Of a DNA stretch of 64,000 bases, positions 1-10,988 are shown in pieces. Position 1 is the stretch's first letter. The number at the start of each line of letters is the position of its first letter. This DNA is from Opitutaceae bacterium (GTDB lineage Bacteria > Verrucomicrobiota > Verrucomicrobiia > Opitutales > Opitutaceae), in contig JANQKV010000037.1 in assembly GCA_028280945.1 (NCBI GenBank), forward strand, positions 1 to 64,000, read 5' to 3'. Below the pieces are notes generated by a model. The model was not told where the DNA came from, did no database searches, and saw only the letters and a program-made list of their open reading frames with translations. The translations under genes and the position numbers were made by a program.

Positions 1-3000
1 AAACGCTGCTTGATCCGGCCGTCGTCATCGATGTCGGTGAATTTGGAGAAGGCGATGTTGAGTCCATTGGAACCGCGTTCTATCACGGTCTCAAGCCGGT
101 TGTCGGTGCGGTAGCCCAGCAGGCGCTTCGTCCCGTTGGGCCGGTCGATCTGGGTAAGCCGGCTGGCGTTGTCGTAATGATAGGTTGTCACGCGAAAGCC
201 GTCGGTAACGGTTCGTAGTCGGCCAAAATCATCGTAGCCGTAGGTCACCGTCTTCGCTCCGCCGGGATACACGATGGATTTAAGCCGGTCGTCCTCGTGG
301 TAAGTGTAATGGATCGTATTGCCTTCGCCGTCCTGATACTCTCGAAGTCGGTTCAATTGGTCGTAGGCACGGTAGGAGGTGCGGGTGGTGCCGGAGATGG
401 TCTCCGCTACGTTCTTGGGGAGTCCGTTGGCCCAGTAATCCCGAGTGACGCTGCCCACTCCATCGGAGATGGCCAGCGGACGGCCCTCGGCATCAAAGGA
501 GGTGATGTTGGTGATCTCGTTGGAGGCTTCGGTGATCTTGGCCACCAAGCCGCGCAAGTTTAGCTCGACGACATGGGATTTGCCAGTGGGGGTAGTGCGA
601 GTGACCTTGCGGTTGGCATCGTCATAAACGGTGGTGTAGTTCTTGCCCCGGCGGTTGTTGAGGTTGGTCTCTCGACCGTTTTTGTCGCGGGTGTAGGTGA
701 CGGTCTTGTTGAGGGCATCAGCCCATTCTTTCATCCGGCCGGCTTTATCGAACGTGGTGCTTGTGGTGTTCAGCAGGGGAGAGGTCACATCGGTCACGTT
801 GCCGTCGGCGTCGTAGGTAAAGTTGGTGGTCTTGCCCAAGGGATCCTTGGTCCAAATCCGCCGGAGGGCCTTGTCGTAGCCGTGCTCAACGACCGCTCCG
901 TTGGCATCGGTGGATTTCCAGAGCAGGTTTCGGTCGTCGTATTGGTTGGCCAGCACGGTGACTTGGGCAGAGCCACGCTTGATGGTGAGGAGGTGCCCAA
1001 GGGCATCGTAGGCGTAATCGGTCGTGCGGCCGGAAGCATCCACCGTATAGTCCACTGCCCCGGAGGCGTCATAGACGGTCTGGTCGACCGCCTGGGTGTT
1101 GTAGGTGGTCGAAGTAGGATCGGTGCTGTTATACCAGCGCTTGGTGTGGGTAAGCCGGCGCCGGTCGTTGTATTCAAACGTGGTCTTCTCCGAGCGCCGC
1201 CCGATGATTTCCTCCACGTCACCTCGGGAATTGTAGGTCATGGTCGTAGTGCCTCCGACCGGGTGGGTGATGGTCCGGGCGTTGCCATAGCTGTCGAAAT
1301 TACTGAAGGTGGTGGCGGAGGAGTCGGCGGGGGTCAGCAGGGAAGTTATGCGCCCGGTTCCGTCGTAGCCAAAATCCGTCACCAGGCCGCCGGGGGCAGT
1401 AATGGTATCGACGCTGTGCTGGGTGGTGTAGGTGATGACGGTTTCGTTGCCCTCGAAATCGTAGATCTTCCACGGTCTTTGCTCGCTGTCGGGCACGATG
1501 GAGCGGATATCGCCCAACGGATTCTTCTCCTGGGTGAGAACGTGGTGGGCGTTGTAGGTGTATTCCCAGAGACCCACCCGGGGGGTAATCATCCCCACTG
1601 TGCGGTCCCGGCCGTCGTAAAGCCATGAAGTGGTGTTGCCTTCCCCATCTATATGACGCACGCGGCGATATTTTTCGTCGAAGTGAGTCCACATCAGGTT
1701 GCCGTCGGCATCCGCCTCCCGCGCCATCCAGGGCGCGTAGCCGATCTCAGTCTCCTTGGACGCGACACCTTGGGGACGCTGGATATTAACCCGATCGAAG
1801 ACGTCGTAGTCGTTTTCGACCACCGTGCGATTGAGGGCATCCTTGACGCGAGTGACCCTGCCCAAAGTGTCAGCCTCAAAGGTCATGGCATAGGACTCGG
1901 GGCCGGTGATAGTGATATCGTTTACGCTGCGGCTGTAGGTAACGGTCCGCCCGGTGCTGTCGGTCACGGTCGACAAGGCGTCACCCGAGTAGGCAAAGGT
2001 CAGGGTGCGGTTGTAGCGATCCGTAACCGTCTGCAGTTTATTACCGGAATAACTAAGGGTCAGGGTATTGTTGTAAGGATCAGTGACCGTGGTCGCCTTG
2101 CCGTCGTTGGCCCGGAATGTAATTTCATTGCCGTGGCGAAACTCGAGGGTGTGAACTCCAGTGGTCTCGTTAAGCGAAAGAGTGATCGGCAGGCTGGAGG
2201 ACTGCATGAAGTCACCGTCGGGCAATCGGTCGAACTGAATGCGGCGTTCGCCGAGGGAAACGAGGCGTTTGGAGTCACGCAGGTGGCGGGCAGCAGCAGC
2301 GGTAGCGCAAGCGCGCAGAGCCACGTCTTTCGCGGTAGGACTGGCGGCGGCCGTATCAAGCAGGTATTGCAGCATCACGATCTGAGGGGCGAGCTCCGCT
2401 ACGGAGGCACGCCGCAGATCGGCTGCTGTGGACGGTAAGGTCGTGACAGATAGATCATAGCTGTGGGTCCACCCATCTCCGATCCCAGCTACATCCTTGC
2501 CGAGCCTCGCCGAAGAATAGTGGTTTGTAAATTCTATGCCATCCGGCCCGGAGTTTGAACCTAACGTCAGACCTGGCACATCATAGAGGAAGGATCCATT
2601 TGTTAAATCAACGGGATCTGCGGCAGTCGGGGGCTCGACCCCGTCCGGTGAATTGGTGTCCGTGTCATTAACGGATGTTTCGGTGACGTCCTCAGGGGTG
2701 GTTCCAGTATCTGGTGAGTTCCCTCCATTTAAACCTCCATCAATTAAATAAGCACCGCCCGCTCGCCATCCCGTGGAACTGAATTCAGGGACCACGTACG
2801 CGCCCCCTCCCGTGAGGCCGTTGCCATCATAAATAGCGTTTGAAAGCTCACTTGGAACGTAAGCCCACTTGTTGTTGTCCTGCACCGAGCTTTGCACCGA
2901 ACTAATCAAGCCATTAGCTTCACCAGAAACTCTCTTAATTTCAGTATCCCAGTTGCCAGCGGTAAGCCGGATAATCTTAGCCCCATTACGCAAGGCCGAC

Positions 3001-4826
3001 TCCAACACCGCCACTGTAGAGTAAGCAGTCACCCCAGTGGCCTGCTCCAAAACCAGGTGCTCCGTCGCAGATGCCCAATAATGAGCAGCATCCATGGCAG
3101 CAACCCTCTTTTCATCCCCAATAGTCTGCGAGAGGTTGCCCCTCATAAGTCGAGTTGTAACGAAGTTAGCCACTCCGTCGACGGTCCAAGCGCTTCCCGT
3201 ATATCTATACAGGGCGATGTTTGCATCCATAGCCAGATAAACATCGGACAGTGCTCCCGATATCTGCCTAACCATTTGATTATGTTGATAGCGCTCTAAA
3301 GATAATACGCTAAGTGTGCTATCGACTGATGCGGTGCTATCCGGATCAATCGCCGACTCCTTAGCTTGGAGCTTTCTGGCATATTCTATTCGACCTGAGG
3401 AATTAACAAAACTATTTGCGCCTATAACAATTCTACCGTTTCGATTAGAAATGGTCTTAGTTTTTACCGATTCGGATGAGGGTGCGGTCGGAAAAGTAAC
3501 TCCAATCTCCAAATTCAACTCGTTCTGATTTGATGTAAAACCACCTTCAGAAAGGATGCTACTGCCACCATTACGATAAAGATGTGCTTTTCCGTTTCCA
3601 TCAAATCCGATGGCCAAAATATCATCGGCGAGGTCACACCAGTTGATTGAAGTATCGCTAGTGCCCAACCGAATTCGTATCACCTGAGCTCGCGTAGCAG
3701 GAATTTCTGTTTGCGGGGTGTAACCAGAGTAACCCGTATTACTAATAACGGGCAAAGATCCTGCTCCGTCTTCATCCAGAACAGGGATTCCTAGGATTTC
3801 CCGAATGGACTTTTCGGTATGGTTTGCGGCAGCGTTTAACGAATAGTTTGCAATAATATTGCGCACATCATTCTGCATGCTGTCCACAAGAGCGGAGGTA
3901 GTGCTATAACTATCGCCCGATACGGTTCCTCCGGCAGCATTTGTGATGGATGTTGAACTGTATCCAGAAAACATACTGGCAACCTCAATTCGCGAAGAAC
4001 GCGAGGTTGCTTTATAAGCCGGATCCAAGTGATATGAATTGCCGTCAATGGTCAATTGAACCCATATCCGTTTTTTTCGAACTGAGTTTGCACCTACTGC
4101 CGTGCCCCACCGCAACCCGAGAGCAATCAAAGTATCCTCAGTATTATACACATCCCACCCGAGCCAATCTTCAAGTTGCTGATCCGTATACTCCTTGTAG
4201 CCCTCGTGATATTCAATATCACTTTCCGGCACACCCGATAATTTAAGCAATGAAACTAATAGAGCACATTGATCGTAGTCATTGCCTTGCATTTCGACTG
4301 CCGTAACATGCGCACCTTGGCGAAGTCCATAGTAAGGCACATATTCAACGTTGGTTTTTACCCAATTGAAGATTTGCAATGGATCATAGTTTAAACCCCA
4401 GGCGATTTCCGCCAAAAAGTCGGTTGATTGTTCACCCAAGCCCAAGGTCGGAGCACTTTGAGAGGTGGCTACGGTAACAGTTTCAGTTTCCGCCATGGCG
4501 TAAGCCACGGTCGGAACGCCTGTCATCTTGGCTGAGGTCTTGGGGGGCTTACGGACCCAGTCACGTTTCCGCATTGGCTTGAGTTGGTTTCGACCAAAGG
4601 CGGGCGGCGCAATGTTCTCGGTGGTGGGATTACGCAGACGGCCGCGTTGTTCCAGCTCGGTGCGCCACTTACTGCCCGGGGTCCAATCAACCTGAACCGT
4701 CTCGTTTAAGTCATTGCTCGCTGAACGCTCAGCTTGAGCTTGAAGGTCCAGCCCGGCCACCATCAAAGCAAAACCCAACCCCATAGCTTTAACCGATGAG
4801 TGAGAGAGGAAATCTAGATGCATCAT
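1..4826 (-). CDS. Transglutaminase-like domain + RHS/YD-repeat protein (partial, C-terminus beyond window)
   Basis: Own translation of the minus frame (codon high coordinate = 2 mod 3) is open in every segment checked from ATGATG at 4826 to position 1. Transglutaminase-like segment QGAHVTAVEMQGNDYDQCALLVSLLKLSGVP at about 4210-4320, followed by many YD repeats (e.g. TDRYNRTLTFAYSGDALSTVTD, YDGTGRITSL, YDALGHLLTIKRG). Not in ORF track because no stop occurs in the window. Confidence 0.92.
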   Translation of the reverse strand, partial: MMHLDFLSHSSVKAMGLGFALMVAGLDLQAQAERSASNDLNETVQVDWTPGSKWRTELEQRGRLRNPTTENIAPPAFGRNQLKPMRKRDWVRKPPKTSAKMTGVPTVAYAMAETETVTVATSQSAPTLGLGEQSTDFLAEIAWGLNYDPLQIFNWVKTNVEYVPYYGLRQGAHVTAVEMQGNDYDQCALLVSLLKLSGVPESDIEYHEGYKEYTDQQLEDWLGWDVYNTEDTLIALGLRWGTAVGANSVRKKRIWVQLTIDGNSYHLDPAYKATSRSSRIEVASMFSGYSSTSITNAAGGTVSGDSYSTTSALVDSMQNDVRNIIANYSLNAAANHTEKSIREILGIPVLDEDGAGSLPVISNTGYSGYTPQTEIPATRAQVIRIRLGTSDTSINWCDLADDILAIGFDGNGKAHLYRNGGSSILSEGGFTSNQNELNLEIGVTFPTAPSSESVKTKTISNRNGRIVIGANSFVNSSGRIEYARKLQAKESAIDPDSTASVDSTLSVLSLERYQHNQMVRQISGALSDVYLAMDANIALYRYTGSAWTVDGVANFVTTRLMRGNLSQTIGDEKRVAAMDAAHYWASATEHLVLEQATGVTAYSTVAVLESALRNGAKIIRLTAGNWDTEIKRVSGEANGLISSVQSSVQDNNKWAYVPSELSNAIYDGNGLTGGGAYVVPEFSSTGWRAGGAYLIDGGLNGGNSPDTGTTPEDVTETSVNDTDTNSPDGVEPPTAADPVDLTNGSFLYDVPGLTLGSNSGPDGIEFTNHYSSARLGKDVAGIGDGWTHSYDLSVTTLPSTAADLRRASVAELAPQIVMLQYLLDTAAASPTAKDVALRACATAAAARHLRDSKRLVSLGERRIQFDRLPDGDFMQSSSLPITLSLNETTGVHTLEFRHGNEITFRANDGKATTVTDPYNNTLTLSYSGNKLQTVTDRYNRTLTFAYSGDALSTVTDSTGRTVTYSRSVNDITITGPESYAMTFEADTLGRVTRVKDALNRTVVENDYDVFDRVNIQRPQGVASKETEIGYAPWMAREADADGNLMWTHFDEKYRRVRHIDGEGNTTSWLYDGRDRTVGMITPRVGLWEYTYNAHHVLTQEKNPLGDIRSIVPDSEQRPWKIYDFEGNETVITYTTQHSVDTITAPGGLVTDFGYDGTGRITSLLTPADSSATTFSNFDSYGNARTITHPVGGTTTMTYNSRGDVEEIIGRRSEKTTFEYNDRRRLTHTKRWYNSTDPTSTTYNTQAVDQTVYDASGAVDYTVDASGRTTDYAYDALGHLLTIKRGSAQVTVLANQYDDRNLLWKSTDANGAVVEHGYDKALRRIWTKDPLGKTTNFTYDADGNVTDVTSPLLNTTSTTFDKAGRMKEWADALNKTVTYTRDKNGRETNLNNRRGKNYTTVYDDANRKVTRTTPTGKSHVVELNLRGLVAKITEASNEITNITSFDAEGRPLAISDGVGSVTRDYWANGLPKNVAETISGTTRTSYRAYDQLNRLREYQDGEGNTIHYTYHEDDRLKSIVYPGGAKTVTYGYDDFGRLRTVTDGFRVTTYHYDNASRLTQIDRPNGTKRLLGYRTDNRLETVIERGSNGLNIAFSKFTDIDDDGRIKQR

Positions 4827-4851
4827 TTAGAGAAATATTTTGAGGGTTCCG

Positions 4852-7800
4852 TTATTTCGCATTGCCAGCATCATCATAGCTGTAGCCCCGCTCCGGACTG
4901 CTTTTAAGCTGCCCGTTCTTGTCGTAATCGTAGTTTTGCGTATTTCCCGAAGACACATCCGTATCATCATTCGGATCCAATCCAGCCTCATACTCGAGTA
5001 GGTTGGATGCGCCGTCGCCGTCAGGGTCTCCCTCGGCTCCGTTGACACCATTCGGATCATTGGGGTCCAAACCGTGTTGGATTTCCCATGAATCCGGCAG
5101 TCCGTCCGAGTCTGAATCCCCATCCGGGATTTCAGTCGTAAAATCCCATACCGAACTGGCAGTGGATCCGTAGGCATTTACGGCGACCACTTTCCAATAA
5201 TACGTGGTGTTCATCACCAGTTCGCCCGGTGGGTCATAGCTGGTTCCTGACGGAACCGAAACGGCTGAATTGTTGTCCGGATTTGGATCGGTGCCAAAAT
5301 AGACATTATAAGACGTGGCGCCCGGGGCTGGACTCCATGAAACGGCACTGCTCAAGGAGACACTGAGACTACCATCGGAAGGACTGGGACCACTTGGTGC
5401 CGAAGGAGGCACCCCTATTGTGGTAAAGCTCCAGACCGGACCGGACGTGGAACCGTAAGCGTTTTTGGCCACCACCTGCCAATAATAGACGGTTTCCGGC
5501 TGCAGGTCCCCAGCTGGGTCGTAAGTGGTCCCCGAGGGAACTGAAACCGCCGGGTTGGTTCCCGGATCCGAATGGGTTCCAAAGTAAACGTCATATGACG
5601 TGGCGCCGGTGGCTGCACTCCACGAAACGGCACTGCTCAACGCCACATCAAGGCTGCCGGCGGCAGGACTGGGGCCACTTGGTGCTGATGGAGGAGCCCC
5701 CGTCGTAAAGCTCCAGACCGGGCCAGACGTGGAACCGTAAGTGTTCTTGGCCACCACCTGCCAATAATAGACGGTGCCCGGCTGCAGGTTCCCCGGCGGG
5801 TCGTAAGTGGTCGTGGTTTGGTTGCCTATGAGCTCGCTGGAGTCCGGGGTGGCATCCGTGCCAAAATACACATCATAGGATGAAGCCCCACTGGCTGCAC
5901 TCCATGAAAGCACGGCATCCAACAAAACATCGGAGCTGCCGCTGGATGGGCTCGGTCCACTTGGTGCTGACGGGGGCAGGCCGGTGGTAGTGAAGCTCCA
6001 GACCGGTCCCGGGTTGGAACCAAAGGCATTTTTGGCCACCACCTGCCAATAATAAACGGTTTCCGGCAGCAGGTCCCCTGTAGGATCGAAGCTGGTCGTC
6101 GACTGGTTGCCTACAAATTCGCCGGCATCCGGGGTCGAATCCGTGCCAAAATACACATCATAAGACGTGGCGCCAACGGCTACATTCCACGATACGGCAC
6201 TGCTCAATGCCACATCGATGCTGCCATTGGTTGGATTGGGGGCGCTTGGCACCGAGGAGGGAGGCACTCCGGTTGTGGTAAAGCTCCAGACCGGCCCTGA
6301 GGTGGAGCCGTAGGCATTCTTGGCCACCACCTGCCAATAATAGACGGTTTCCGGCAGCAAGTCCCCTGCTGGGTCGTAGCTGGTCGTCGCCTGGTTGCCT
6401 GCAAATTCGCCAGCATCCGGGGTGGCATCCGTGCCAAAATACACATCATAAGACGTGGCACCATTGGCAGCGCTCCATGAAACGGCACTGCTCAACGCCA
6501 CATCAAGACCACCGGAGGCAGGACTGGGCGCACCCGGGGCTGAAGTAGGAGGCACCCCGGTCGTGGTAAAGCTCCAAACCGGACTCGAAACTGGAGTTGT
6601 CGAGGTGTTCTTCGCAACGATCTGCCAATAGTAAGTCGTCAGGGGAGCGAGATCTCCGGGAGGGTCGTAGCTGGTGCCGGTCTGACTGCCGATAAATTCA
6701 CTGCTATCCGGGGTCGAATCAGTCCCAAAATAAACGTCGTAGGAATCCGCTCCGGCTGCGGCGGCCCACGAAATCGCCTGGGTAAACGGCCGGCCCGTGC
6801 TTCCGCTGGCGGGGTTGGGTGAACCCGGCGCATTGGGAGGCGTCTCTTCCATCCAGAGGCTCACGGTTTTGTTATGGCTCAATGGCGGACTTCCATCGTC
6901 CGTCACGGTCAGCTTGATCGGGTAGGTGCCCGTTACTGCATACGTATGATTAACGCTTACACCGCTCCCGGTGTTTCCATCACCAAACGTCCAGGCATAA
7001 GTCAGGTTGTCCCCATCGGGATCAGACGACGAAGAGGCATTGAGTGAAACTTGAAGATAATTCCGAGAGTAGGTAAACGCTGCGGTCGGCGCTTGGTTGG
7101 GTACATCCTGGATAGTAACAACATGGTTTTGGTTAGCCAATGTAGAATTTCCAGTGGAATTTCGAGAGACATCGCTATAACTCGCACTGAAGGTGACAGT
7201 GGCCGGTCCATTGTCAGATGTATTAACCTGAGTGCTAAACCAACCTGCAGACATAAAGGCCCCGTTTTTGTAAAGCGTAACGCGGGGAAGATGCGCGGAG
7301 TCCACGGCTACAGCTATATTGTACGTTGTGGCATGCGGAGCAGAAGTGGTGCCGGTCCACAGGTAGGAAACTGAGCGATAGGAAGCGCTGGCTGTTCCAT
7401 TGCCACTTCCCATCGTGAAAGTCGAATTTGGTTCGTGCAGATTGTTGATCGAACCCGAGCCTCCAACACTCCACGCATTAAAAACTTGGTTCTGCGCCGG
7501 GTTGTTCGCGGAAATCGAAACATTCGAACCGGCAGGATAATTGCCGCTGCCACTCCCGGAATAGACCGTCAGCTTGGGTTGAACCGTAACTTGGTATGAA
7601 GTATTAAAGTTAACTCTCAATTCGCCCACTCCGGGGTCTGTATGGTTACCCGCGTGGGAACTGTCAGCCAGTTGGCCCACGTAGAATGTGTAACTGTCGG
7701 GAGCATTTGGGGTCCATGGGGCGGACCCCCAGTTGGTTTGACCTACCACCGCAAATACCTTGGTGCCGCTGCCGTTGGTGGGAGGCGCGGATATGGAAGG

Positions 7801-8217
7801 AGCCCACGCCACCCCTTGGGAAATATTGAAATAATTTGAACTGGTGGGATCTGTCATCGGTGCTTTTACCACCGTGATCGTATAGGGAGAGCCGTTTACT
7901 TGGAGATTGCCGACGATGGGATCAGTCACGTTCCCGTGGTGGGAAGAGTCCGCCAACTGCCCAACATACATTGTGTAAGCGCCCGGGGCTGTGGGAGTCC
8001 AAGGTGCTGAACCCCAGTTGGTATAACCGGCAATGGCAAAAACCTTTGCTCCGGTCCCATTGCTGGGCGGAGCTGAAATCACAGGGCTGAAACTACTCCA
8101 TGCGGTAACTGTTGCATTGGAACTGGTCGGATTGACCATCGGGAGGGTCGCACCGAGTGTTTGCATCAACCCAAACACCGGGACCAAATACTTGGTAAAA
8201 CGAAGGGCTCTTTTCAT
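4852..8217 (-). CDS. Exported PKD / fibronectin-III-like repeat protein with TSP3-like DxDxDG linker and terminal YD motif
   Basis: 1121-aa ORF. N-terminal hydrophobic segment, two related about 95-aa N-terminal modules (TNWGSAPWTP..YVGQLADSSH), PKD motif (DPDGDNLTYAWTFGDGNTGSG), six SYDVYFGT...YYWQVVAKNAYGSTSGPVWSFTT repeats, DSDSDGLPDSWE, C-terminus NYDYDKNGQLKSSPERGYSYDDAGNAK. Confidence 0.9.
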   Translation of the reverse strand: MKRALRFTKYLVPVFGLMQTLGATLPMVNPTSSNATVTAWSSFSPVISAPPSNGTGAKVFAIAGYTNWGSAPWTPTAPGAYTMYVGQLADSSHHGNVTDPIVGNLQVNGSPYTITVVKAPMTDPTSSNYFNISQGVAWAPSISAPPTNGSGTKVFAVVGQTNWGSAPWTPNAPDSYTFYVGQLADSSHAGNHTDPGVGELRVNFNTSYQVTVQPKLTVYSGSGSGNYPAGSNVSISANNPAQNQVFNAWSVGGSGSINNLHEPNSTFTMGSGNGTASASYRSVSYLWTGTTSAPHATTYNIAVAVDSAHLPRVTLYKNGAFMSAGWFSTQVNTSDNGPATVTFSASYSDVSRNSTGNSTLANQNHVVTIQDVPNQAPTAAFTYSRNYLQVSLNASSSSDPDGDNLTYAWTFGDGNTGSGVSVNHTYAVTGTYPIKLTVTDDGSPPLSHNKTVSLWMEETPPNAPGSPNPASGSTGRPFTQAISWAAAAGADSYDVYFGTDSTPDSSEFIGSQTGTSYDPPGDLAPLTTYYWQIVAKNTSTTPVSSPVWSFTTTGVPPTSAPGAPSPASGGLDVALSSAVSWSAANGATSYDVYFGTDATPDAGEFAGNQATTSYDPAGDLLPETVYYWQVVAKNAYGSTSGPVWSFTTTGVPPSSVPSAPNPTNGSIDVALSSAVSWNVAVGATSYDVYFGTDSTPDAGEFVGNQSTTSFDPTGDLLPETVYYWQVVAKNAFGSNPGPVWSFTTTGLPPSAPSGPSPSSGSSDVLLDAVLSWSAASGASSYDVYFGTDATPDSSELIGNQTTTTYDPPGNLQPGTVYYWQVVAKNTYGSTSGPVWSFTTGAPPSAPSGPSPAAGSLDVALSSAVSWSAATGATSYDVYFGTHSDPGTNPAVSVPSGTTYDPAGDLQPETVYYWQVVAKNAYGSTSGPVWSFTTIGVPPSAPSGPSPSDGSLSVSLSSAVSWSPAPGATSYNVYFGTDPNPDNNSAVSVPSGTSYDPPGELVMNTTYYWKVVAVNAYGSTASSVWDFTTEIPDGDSDSDGLPDSWEIQHGLDPNDPNGVNGAEGDPDGDGASNLLEYEAGLDPNDDTDVSSGNTQNYDYDKNGQLKSSPERGYSYDDAGNAK
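5130..6835 (-). repeat. Six tandem Fn3-encoding repeats, about 282-291 bp each
   Basis: The block accacctgccaataatag and variants recurs at 5186, 5471, 5753, 6038, 6326 and about 6616, with matching protein repeats SYDVYFGTD...WQVVAKN. Confidence 0.9.
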
Positions 8218-8232
8218 CAGTATAGTCGGGGC

Positions 8233-9267
8233 TCAGGGTTGTGATCCAAATAACCGGTAGTCCTCCACTGCCTTTGGGGTAAGCGCTACCGCCACGATGA
8301 CTCCTGCGCTGTCCACCAAATAGGTCATTCCGGGCTGATTGAGATGGAGGGCGCTGCTTAACCGCATTTGCGGATCATCCTGGAGCAACAGCCCGGGCAG
8401 GTCATAATAGTTTGGTTTCCCTCGACCTCCTCCCCCTTGATCGCCATTTTCCAAGTTGATCCCTATCTGCTGCACTTGGGGATCCAGGCGCTCGGCCAGC
8501 GACTTTGCCATGAACTGGGACGAGGGGTCTTCACTCGACCAGGTGTAGACCACAACGGGAACGTTCGGCGTGAGCTGCCGAAGGGCAGCCTGGTCCTGTG
8601 GCCTCAAGAGTTGAGCCAGATTTTGGCCGATCAGCCCCAATCTGGCCTGCTCCGCCATCGCGGCTGTTTTGAGGTGTTGGGGGGTGTTTGCATTCGAGAT
8701 TACCTTCGACAGGATGGCTGACGCATCGACCGGCTCGCTGACGCGCGCGATGCCAATCAGGGATTCGAAGCCTGTCTCCCAGCTGGGAAACTCTTTGGAT
8801 ATACGCTCCGCTCCCTCTGCAAAAGCCTTGATGCGTTCTCCGTGCCCTCGGAACGGTCGTTGTTCGATGGCGGTGTTCTCGGCCGTCGCAACCACCTCTG
8901 CTCTGAGTTCAACCGGAACCGTGGTATCTGCCCTGACGCTCGCTACTGCGGCCTCCCGCCGACTCTGCTGCGACCGGTCCCCCGCCTTCCATGCTTTTAC
9001 CAGACTCAAAGCCTCGTAGGCGCGGGCCTTCGAAGCAGCGGAGTGTCCGGGGTTTTCCGAATAAAATCCCCGGAAATCATCAGCCAATGCGATTTCTCCC
9101 TCGGCCCCGCGCGGGGAATTATCCCTGGATCTCGGCTCAAGTTCTCCCCACCGCTGGTCAGGGGTCTTGGCGAGGTCGGACTGGGCCAAGAGAGCTGCCC
9201 CGGTTACAAAAAAGGCAAGCACCGCACCTTGAGTGCGGAAGAGTTTAAGAAATTGCTGAATTTTCAT
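8233..9267 (-). CDS. Exported thioredoxin-like protein lacking a CxxC motif
   Basis: Start MKIQQFLKLF with signal-like segment. C-terminal VPVVVYTWSSEDPSSQFMAKSLAERL..PGMTYLVDSAGVIVAV resembles a thioredoxin fold. 15-nt gap to the downstream gene. Confidence 0.65.
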   Translation of the reverse strand: MKIQQFLKLFRTQGAVLAFFVTGAALLAQSDLAKTPDQRWGELEPRSRDNSPRGAEGEIALADDFRGFYSENPGHSAASKARAYEALSLVKAWKAGDRSQQSRREAAVASVRADTTVPVELRAEVVATAENTAIEQRPFRGHGERIKAFAEGAERISKEFPSWETGFESLIGIARVSEPVDASAILSKVISNANTPQHLKTAAMAEQARLGLIGQNLAQLLRPQDQAALRQLTPNVPVVVYTWSSEDPSSQFMAKSLAERLDPQVQQIGINLENGDQGGGGRGKPNYYDLPGLLLQDDPQMRLSSALHLNQPGMTYLVDSAGVIVAVALTPKAVEDYRLFGSQP

Positions 9268-10262
9268 GATCGGGGGAATAGGGGGTACGCTGAAAAATGC
9301 TTCTTTTGTGCTAGGCCGCTTAGCTATCAGGGGAACTCCGGGATCGCTTCGACATTCGATGCCGCTTCGGTCGCTTTCCGGTTGGCCAGACCCACGGCCA
9401 TACGATCGCCCAGTCATTAAGCGTTTCTTATCCTAAGTCTCAAACAATCCTGTCGAAGAATCTTATTCTGCTTCTACTCCCGATCGTGTGAAGACATGAA
9501 CCAGCGTTGCGAATGCAATCCAGTGGTTCACTGGCAAAAGGGCTTTAGGCTTAAGTCAGTCTGACTTTTATCTCTTTTATGAATAGCGTTTTATGATTCG
9601 ATTATCGGATTTCTTGTTCGATAACGTCGAGATTCAAACAAGGTAAGAGAGCCAGTTGACCCGAGAACGTTAGCAAAACTGCTCGGCGAATTCCATAGGG
9701 ATCTCACCTTATTTTGATTAGGAGTCTTAATCTTTAGTTTTTTAGTATATACAATTATAATTCAAACATCCGCTTTGCATGACGCATAAGGAGGCAACAA
9801 GAATTCCCTTATCCACGCAGTGGGTGCACCTCCTTAAACTCGGGTTTGGACCCTCAGTGCTTCCGTGGTCGTCCCTCAAAATCCAAACCCAAAAAATAAG
9901 GAGTCCGAGGGGATTGGCTCTCCCGCTGCGCGGATGTCCGATGTCGTGCGTCAGGCTCGAAATTCGCCCTTGGCTGCATCCCTTCTTCAATTCGGATGAA
10001 ATCATCGTGAATCCCCCGTCGCTGAAGCTCTGGCGGACTACCGTCCACCGAAGCCTTTGGCGAAGGGCGATGAGCCAGGCATTGGGGGATTGAGTCGGGC
10101 GTAAGCGATCTTCGCTCCCGAAACAACGGAGGACTCACAGCCGAAATTCTCGCCTCTCCGTGAAATCGAAATCTGTTAGTTCAAGTAAGCCAAGGACATG
10201 ATCGATCCACTATTTCCGAAGGATCATTGCCTGTGGAACCGTCCCTATCACGCTTCCCCTTA

Positions 10263-10988
10263 ATGCCTTCCTCTCAAAGTGTAGACAACCCACTCGTGGT
10301 CGCTCGTGACTTGGCCAAGATTTATGGTTCGGGTCACGCGGCGGTGCATGCGTTGCGGGGCGTGGATCTGGATCTGCCGCGCGGGGAATTGATTGTGCTC
10401 CTAGGTGCATCGGGCTCGGGAAAGTCCACCTTGCTCAACCTGATCGGAGGTTTGGACAACCCGACGCGGGGCCGGCTCGAATACCGGGGTTGGGACGTGG
10501 CCAAGGCCGATGAGGAAGGACTGACCGCTTATCGCCGCGATGTGGTGGGTTTCGTGTTTCAATTCTACAACCTGATCGCGAGCCTGACCGCCCGCGAAAA
10601 CATCGCTCTCATCACCGAGGTTTCGCGGGATCCCATGTCGCCCGATGAAGCGCTTAAACTGGTCGACCTGACGGATCGGGCGCACCACTTCCCGGCACAG
10701 TTGTCGGGGGGCGAGCAGCAGCGGGTCGCCATTGCCCGCGCCATCGCCAAGCGACCGGAACTGTTGTTGTGCGACGAACCCACCGGCGCCCTCGATGTGA
10801 AAACCGGCATGCTTGTGCTGGAGGCGATTCAGCGGATCAACCGCGAGATCGGCACCCTCACCCTCGTGATCACCCACAACGCCGTGCTGGCCGAAATGGC
10901 GGACCGTGTCTTCACCATGTCCGACGGCCAGCTTGAACTGGCGCGGGTCAACACCAGCCCCCGCCCCGTTCGGGAACTTTCGTGGTAA
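10263..10988 (+). CDS. ABC transporter ATP-binding protein (MacB/LolD type)
   Basis: Walker [13 protein letters not shown], signature [14 protein letters not shown], Walker [13 protein letters not shown]. Confidence 0.95.

What the first reader, a model, noticed from the sequence alone, without database searches (positions are those of the whole stretch)
1..9267. Compact three-gene exported cassette: Cys-less Trx-like protein, PKD/Fn3 repeat protein, transglutaminase-like/RHS giant
Three minus-strand genes are separated by only 15 and 25 nt, suggesting one transcript. An exported thioredoxin-fold protein with no CxxC is followed by a repeat adhesin-like protein and a TGase-RHS protein. RHS proteins commonly deliver C-terminal toxins or act as surface glue, and a TGase-like domain could crosslink. 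The combination is not one I recognise as a named system. The novelty claim is inference.
Basis: partly seen in the sequence, partly recalled or inferred. Interest (0 to 1): 0.72.

Follow-up and report, generated by a model that had tools for sequence, protein, structure and literature searches.

The report
Dead thioredoxin partner of RHS toxin
In Opitutaceae bacteria, giant secreted RHS proteins of the interbacterial-toxin type are repeatedly preceded in their operon by an exported protein that descends from a thiol-redox enzyme but has lost its catalytic cysteines, which suggests a non-enzymatic helper, perhaps an escort, dedicated to the toxin.

Summary
In detail: three minus-strand exported genes, 15 and 25 nt apart, the last one cut by the contig end. 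Relatives of the Trx-like protein (p3) form one clade (100/100). In 16 of 17 loci with enough flank a giant RHS gene follows on the same strand, usually behind an Ig/Fn3/TSP3 protein, fused to the RHS in three. All clade members lack CxxC. Homologues with the same TPR+TlpA architecture elsewhere in the class have FWATWCGPC; none of 11 stand-alone homologues with long flanks has an RHS neighbour. So p3 is a redox-dead TPR-TlpA protein tied to RHS cassettes, seen so far only in the window's family (Opitutaceae by named relatives). The RHS part is ordinary: Sec-exported polymorphic toxins with an inactive N-terminal transglutaminase were described in 2012. The window's own tip probably lies on contig C31 (HExxH peptidase-like) after an unbridged gap of about 84 residues. 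Best reading: p3 is an exported escort or assembly factor for the giants, like CnoX in build and EagR in role; this role is inference. Crosslinking by the TGase-like domain is not supported.

The parts
8233..9267 (-). p3: exported, cysteine-free TPR-like + TlpA/CcmG-like protein, 344 aa, signal peptide at its N-terminus
   Evidence: ORF; 0 Cys; AF2 mean pLDDT 84.7; profile match to CcmG/DsbE E 2e-9; Foldseek top hit CcmG 2b1k
8635..9162 (-). p3 N-terminal helical-repeat (TPR-like) domain, residues 36-211
   Evidence: AF2 secondary structure, blocks mostly pLDDT above 90; more strongly conserved than the active-site region in the Cys-less clade
8248..8625 (-). p3 C-terminal thioredoxin-fold (TlpA/CcmG-like) domain, residues 215-340
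8518..8529 (-). DPSS (residues 247-250) at the place of the CxxC active site
   Evidence: alignment; homologues elsewhere in the class read FWATWCGPC
4852..8217 (-). p2: exported 1121-aa stalk/adhesin-like protein (Ig-like N-terminus, PKD, Fn3-like repeats, TSP3, YD-type stub at the C-terminus)
6892..7098 (-). PKD domain of p2 (residues 374-442)
   Evidence: Pfam PF18911 E 7e-19
4957..5118 (-). TSP3 repeats of p2 (residues 1034-1087)
   Evidence: PF18884 weak match and DxDxDG motifs
4855..4944 (-). YD-repeat-like stub at the C-terminus of p2 (YDYDKNGQLKSSPERGYSYDDAGNAK); comparable stubs end the p2 of L020, L021, L027
   Evidence: direct reading
3..4826 (-). p1: exported RHS giant, N-terminal 1608 aa, cut by the contig end
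4227..4376 (-). transglutaminase-like core of p1 around C187; catalytic His not retained
   Evidence: PF01841 17.1 bits, below cut-off; sequence
3..1979 (-). RHS repeats of p1
   Evidence: PF05593 E 2.9e-40

Best explanation
The cassette is a Sec-exported RHS polymorphic-toxin locus. p1 is the RHS shell protein that in intact relatives carries a variable C-terminal tip. p2 is its Ig/PKD/Fn3/TSP3 stalk, split from or fused to the RHS depending on the species. p3 is a dedicated exported accessory: a TPR plus TlpA-type thioredoxin-fold protein that has lost the redox active site and most likely binds the beta-rich giant proteins through its helical domain, acting as an escort/holdase or assembly factor until they are folded, paired or displayed. 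Shown here: gene order, recurrence, loss of CxxC in one clade, fold class (predicted), tip variability in relatives. Inferred: binding, escort role, toxicity, target.
For: RHS gene on the same strand downstream of p3 in 16 of 17 Cys-less loci with enough flank, against 0 of 11 stand-alone homologues (L027 by BLAST; Fisher p 5.6e-7, kinship ignored). Cys-less rows are one side of a branch with 100/100 support, CxxC motif masked. p2 and RHS fused in L025, L030, L032. Helical-domain columns stay conserved (E85 95%, D114 90%) while the active-site surround and the cis-Pro (14 of 21) relax. All three genes start with signal peptides (read by eye) and no T6SS sheath gene is found, so export is Sec-type. 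Tips: Tox-REase-9 with a DUF4304 gene behind (L096); HExxH types on L093 and, by eye, L022; DUF637 in L025, L030, L032. Orphan tips on L020 and L093.
Against: No interaction, secretion or toxicity data exist. Many RHS loci in the family lack p3 (own genome: 2 of 4 loci; G014, G015, G019, G020 hold 8-21 RHS cores and no strong p3), so p3 is not needed for RHS export in general. In L033 the partner is a 1737-aa Fn3/Ig protein without RHS repeats. The window's own tip is not in the window and its assignment to C31 is unproven. A fixed link to a toxin gene does not by itself show a chaperone.
Confidence: 0.5

Rival explanations
1. p3 is a structural part of the mature surface complex (an adaptor or anchor that stays bound to the stalk) rather than a transient escort.
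For: One member, L026, carries an N-terminal CBM9 carbohydrate-binding domain (PF06452, E 1.5e-48), which suits a cell-wall or surface location; the protein directly downstream usually starts with related Ig-like domains.
Against: Only one of the members has such a domain; no lipobox, anchor or sorting signal was seen in the window's p3 (by eye, no predictor run).
Confidence: 0.25
2. p3 is a regulator or sensor, or protects the producer (immunity-like), rather than acting on folding or assembly.
For: Redox-dead enzyme relatives can serve as regulators (general knowledge); the gene stays linked to the toxin.
Against: p3 lies upstream, is co-linear with the stalk gene and belongs to one family while the tips vary, whereas immunity candidates lie directly behind the tips and vary with them.
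Confidence: 0.1
3. p1/p2 is a surface adhesin or matrix protein with the TGase-like domain crosslinking it, not a toxin.
For: PKD, Fn3 and TSP3 content of p2; p1 keeps the Cys and an Asp-containing motif of TGases.
Against: Catalytic His missing in all four relatives compared and Asp missing in L020; variable tips, small genes behind them and orphan tips in relatives; inactive TGase domains are described in RHS toxins (PMC3482391).
Confidence: 0.12

Closest known systems
RHS polymorphic toxins with an inactive N-terminal transglutaminase domain (Zhang et al. 2012, PMC3482391)
   Same: Signal peptide, inactive TGase-like domain, Ig-type domains, RHS array, variable tips, small genes behind them
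   Different: The held text of that survey does not mention thioredoxin; here an exported redox-dead TPR-TlpA protein and a separate stalk gene precede the RHS gene
CnoX/YbbN chaperedoxin (PMC8129009)
   Same: Thioredoxin fold plus TPR helices, atypical active site (SXXC in E. coli), TPR-based holdase activity
   Different: Cytoplasmic, domains in the opposite order, keeps cysteines, works with GroEL; p3 is exported, TlpA/CcmG-type and the window copy has no cysteine
TlpA/ResA/CcmG (DsbE) thiol-disulfide oxidoreductases
   Same: Fold of the C-terminal domain; CxxC homologues with the same TPR+TlpA layout occur across the class
   Different: Catalytic CxxC lost in every member of the cassette-linked clade
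EagR chaperones of T6SS Rhs effectors (PMC7773334)
   Same: Small protein encoded with and dedicated to an Rhs effector (role proposed here by analogy)
   Different: A different, cytoplasmic family that serves the T6SS and binds transmembrane segments of the effector; no T6SS sheath gene was found in this genome

Membership tests
Sec-exported RHS polymorphic toxin | Signal peptide and RHS/YD repeats | tested here: met
   PF05593 E 2.9e-40; N-terminus read by eye, no signal-peptide predictor available
Sec-exported RHS polymorphic toxin | RHS-associated core followed by a variable C-terminal tip and an immunity gene | tested here: inconclusive
   Clear in relatives; for the window it rests on contig C31, 63% identical to the C-terminus of the L020 relative but not joined to C70
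Active transglutaminase | Cys-His-Asp triad | tested here: not met
   C187 kept, His not at the H-x-W-V position in any of four relatives, by alignment reading; AF2 model of this region was poor (pLDDT 37)
TlpA/CcmG thiol-disulfide oxidoreductase | Thioredoxin fold of the TlpA type | tested here: met
TlpA/CcmG thiol-disulfide oxidoreductase | CxxC active site | tested here: not met
   DPSS in the window; absent from all members of the Cys-less clade
CnoX chaperedoxin | Cytoplasmic Trx domain N-terminal to TPR | tested here: not met
   Order reversed and exported
CnoX chaperedoxin | Holdase activity | not testable with these tools
   needs purified protein
T6SS Rhs effector | T6SS in the genome | tested here: not met
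   No VipA/TssB match in G000 (genome 96% complete)

The most novel reading that the evidence does not exclude
A redox-dead TPR-TlpA lineage has become a dedicated extracytoplasmic chaperone for Sec-exported RHS giants, that is, a folding or assembly factor for YD-repeat shells outside the cytoplasm.
Probability: 0.35. Interest if true: 0.7.

Novelty: new variant of a known kind. Interest (0 to 1): 0.5.

Why it matters
How 150-300 kDa RHS shells fold and are kept safe after Sec export is, to my knowledge, open. A conserved exported partner that lost its enzyme active site while staying tied to these toxins is a concrete handle on that question, and a clean case of a catalytic fold turned into a probable binding module.

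Tried and rejected
Direct extension left of position 1: impossible, contig end. C20 as continuation of p1: rejected, it overlaps C28 by 99 exact bases and continues the second cassette. C31: no exact overlap with C70, kept as the probable continuation. Whole genome as file: not available. Genome-collection scan with p3 alone found nothing; alignment A1 had no stretch usable as a pattern; A2 gave named loci. AF2 model of the p1 N-terminus too poor to use, so no fold search was made with it. Anti-phage defence models: no match. A strong-looking hit in another family of the phylum (G464) proved to be a CxxC stand-alone protein. Two earlier trees carried wrong CxxC labels from a faulty text pattern; the labelled result is. 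One search stopped with an error after printing its table; its window residue numbers run one below those around the active site.

Full report
Observation. The scan for promoters and terminators shows nothing between them above shuffles. p1 is open because the window begins at base 1 of contig G000:C70.

What p3 is. p3 has no Pfam or NCBIfam match of its own, but 17 relatives aligned together match CcmG/DsbE and TlpA structures (E 2e-9 for CcmG), and single members match AhpC-TSA, Redoxin and DsbE models. AlphaFold2 gives a helical repeat domain (residues 36-211) followed by a thioredoxin fold (mean pLDDT 84.7); Foldseek puts CcmG first (E 1.3e-3). The CxxC position reads DPSS and the protein has no cysteine. 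In relatives the motif reads, for example, WASWSPGS, WATWSPGS, WASWNPES.

Two kinds of homologue. Profile search over 115 related genomes and 385 of the class finds two groups. Cassette-linked members all lack CxxC and come from the window's own family; named relatives are Opitutaceae, Opitutia or Verrucomicrobia assemblies. Homologues elsewhere in the class, many with the same TPR+TlpA layout, carry FWATWCGPC with few exceptions (L106 has WYGPC). One weak stand-alone homologue, L075 (58 bits), also lacks the motif and has no RHS neighbour. With the motif masked, the 21 Cys-less rows are one side of a branch with 100/100 support. Constraint has moved: helical-domain positions are kept or tighter, the active-site surround is relaxed, cis-Pro is kept in 14 of 21.

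Linkage. Among Cys-less loci with enough flank, 16 of 17 have an RHS gene downstream on the same strand; four more (L023, L031, L067, L082) are cut by contig ends; the exception L033 has an Fn3/Ig giant without RHS. None of 11 stand-alone homologues with long flanks (L069-L079) has one. Fisher p is 5.6e-7, but the linked rows are kin, so the persistence at 20-30% identity over about a dozen genera matters more. The flanks of the 25 class-level loci L100-L124 were only about 1.5 kb, so their surroundings were tested less deeply.

The giants. p2 and RHS are separate genes in most loci and one ORF in L025, L030 and L032. p2 of the window ends in a YD-like stub, as do those of L020, L021 and L027, which suggests that the two halves meet at the RHS shell (inference). 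The L025 fusion also carries SpvB and TcdB-middle domains. Tips after the RHS core vary in sequence and length: Tox-REase-9 in L096 (E 2.7e-28) with a DUF4304 gene behind, peptidase-like HExxH tips, DUF637 regions, and unknown ones.

The missing end. Two RHS-bearing contigs of the own genome begin inside an RHS gene. C20 overlaps C28 by 99 exact bases and so continues the second cassette. C31 is 63% identical to the C-terminus of L020's p1, the closest complete relative of p1 seen, leaving about 84 residues unaccounted for. It holds a tip with HEMGHH (weak M43/M7/M6 matches), a 150-aa exported small gene, a transposase-like gene, and an orphan tip with another small exported gene. This join is probable, not shown.

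Mechanism. Export by Sec is read from the signal peptides; no T6SS sheath gene is present. The TGase-like region lacks the catalytic His and fits the published class of inactive TGase domains in RHS toxins, proposed there to anchor the toxin by binding peptides (PMC3482391). For p3, loss of redox residues with retention of the helical domain and of the gene link favours a binding role; CnoX shows that a Trx-TPR protein can be a holdase (PMC8129009), and EagR shows that Rhs effectors can have dedicated chaperones (PMC7773334, listed). That p3 escorts p2/p1 is my inference, about even odds against anchor, regulator or other roles.

Limits. p3 is optional: many RHS loci lack it. No expression or activity data exist. 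Literature search covered open-access papers only; no paper joining RHS toxins with such a protein was found.

Noticed in passing
L034/L097 (G000:C28) and L092 (G000:C20): Second p3 cassette of the same genome: TSP3 giant, 135-aa gene, p3-like, RHS giant continuing over a 99-base contig overlap, with a 118-aa gene behind the tip.
   Followed up: partly
L094 (G000:C59) 2751-10514 and L095 (G000:C56) 2-9954: Two further RHS loci of the same genome without p3; L094 has a short TSP3 gene and a 192-aa exported gene instead, and L024 has a 193-aa TPR gene between p2 and RHS.
   Followed up: no
L026:7093-8697: p3 member with an N-terminal CBM9 carbohydrate-binding domain in front of the helical and thioredoxin-fold parts.
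   Followed up: no
L033:6449-13760 and L067:2-5136: p3 members next to Fn3/He_PIG/PA14 giants in which no RHS repeats were found (L067 is cut by the contig end).
   Followed up: partly
L093:1577-2602: Transposase-like gene between a tip/immunity pair and an orphan RHS tip, a possible means of tip exchange.
   Followed up: no
L025:4878-13667: Single ORF joining the Ig/Fn3 stalk to SpvB, FG-GAP, TcdB-middle and RHS parts directly behind p3.
   Followed up: no
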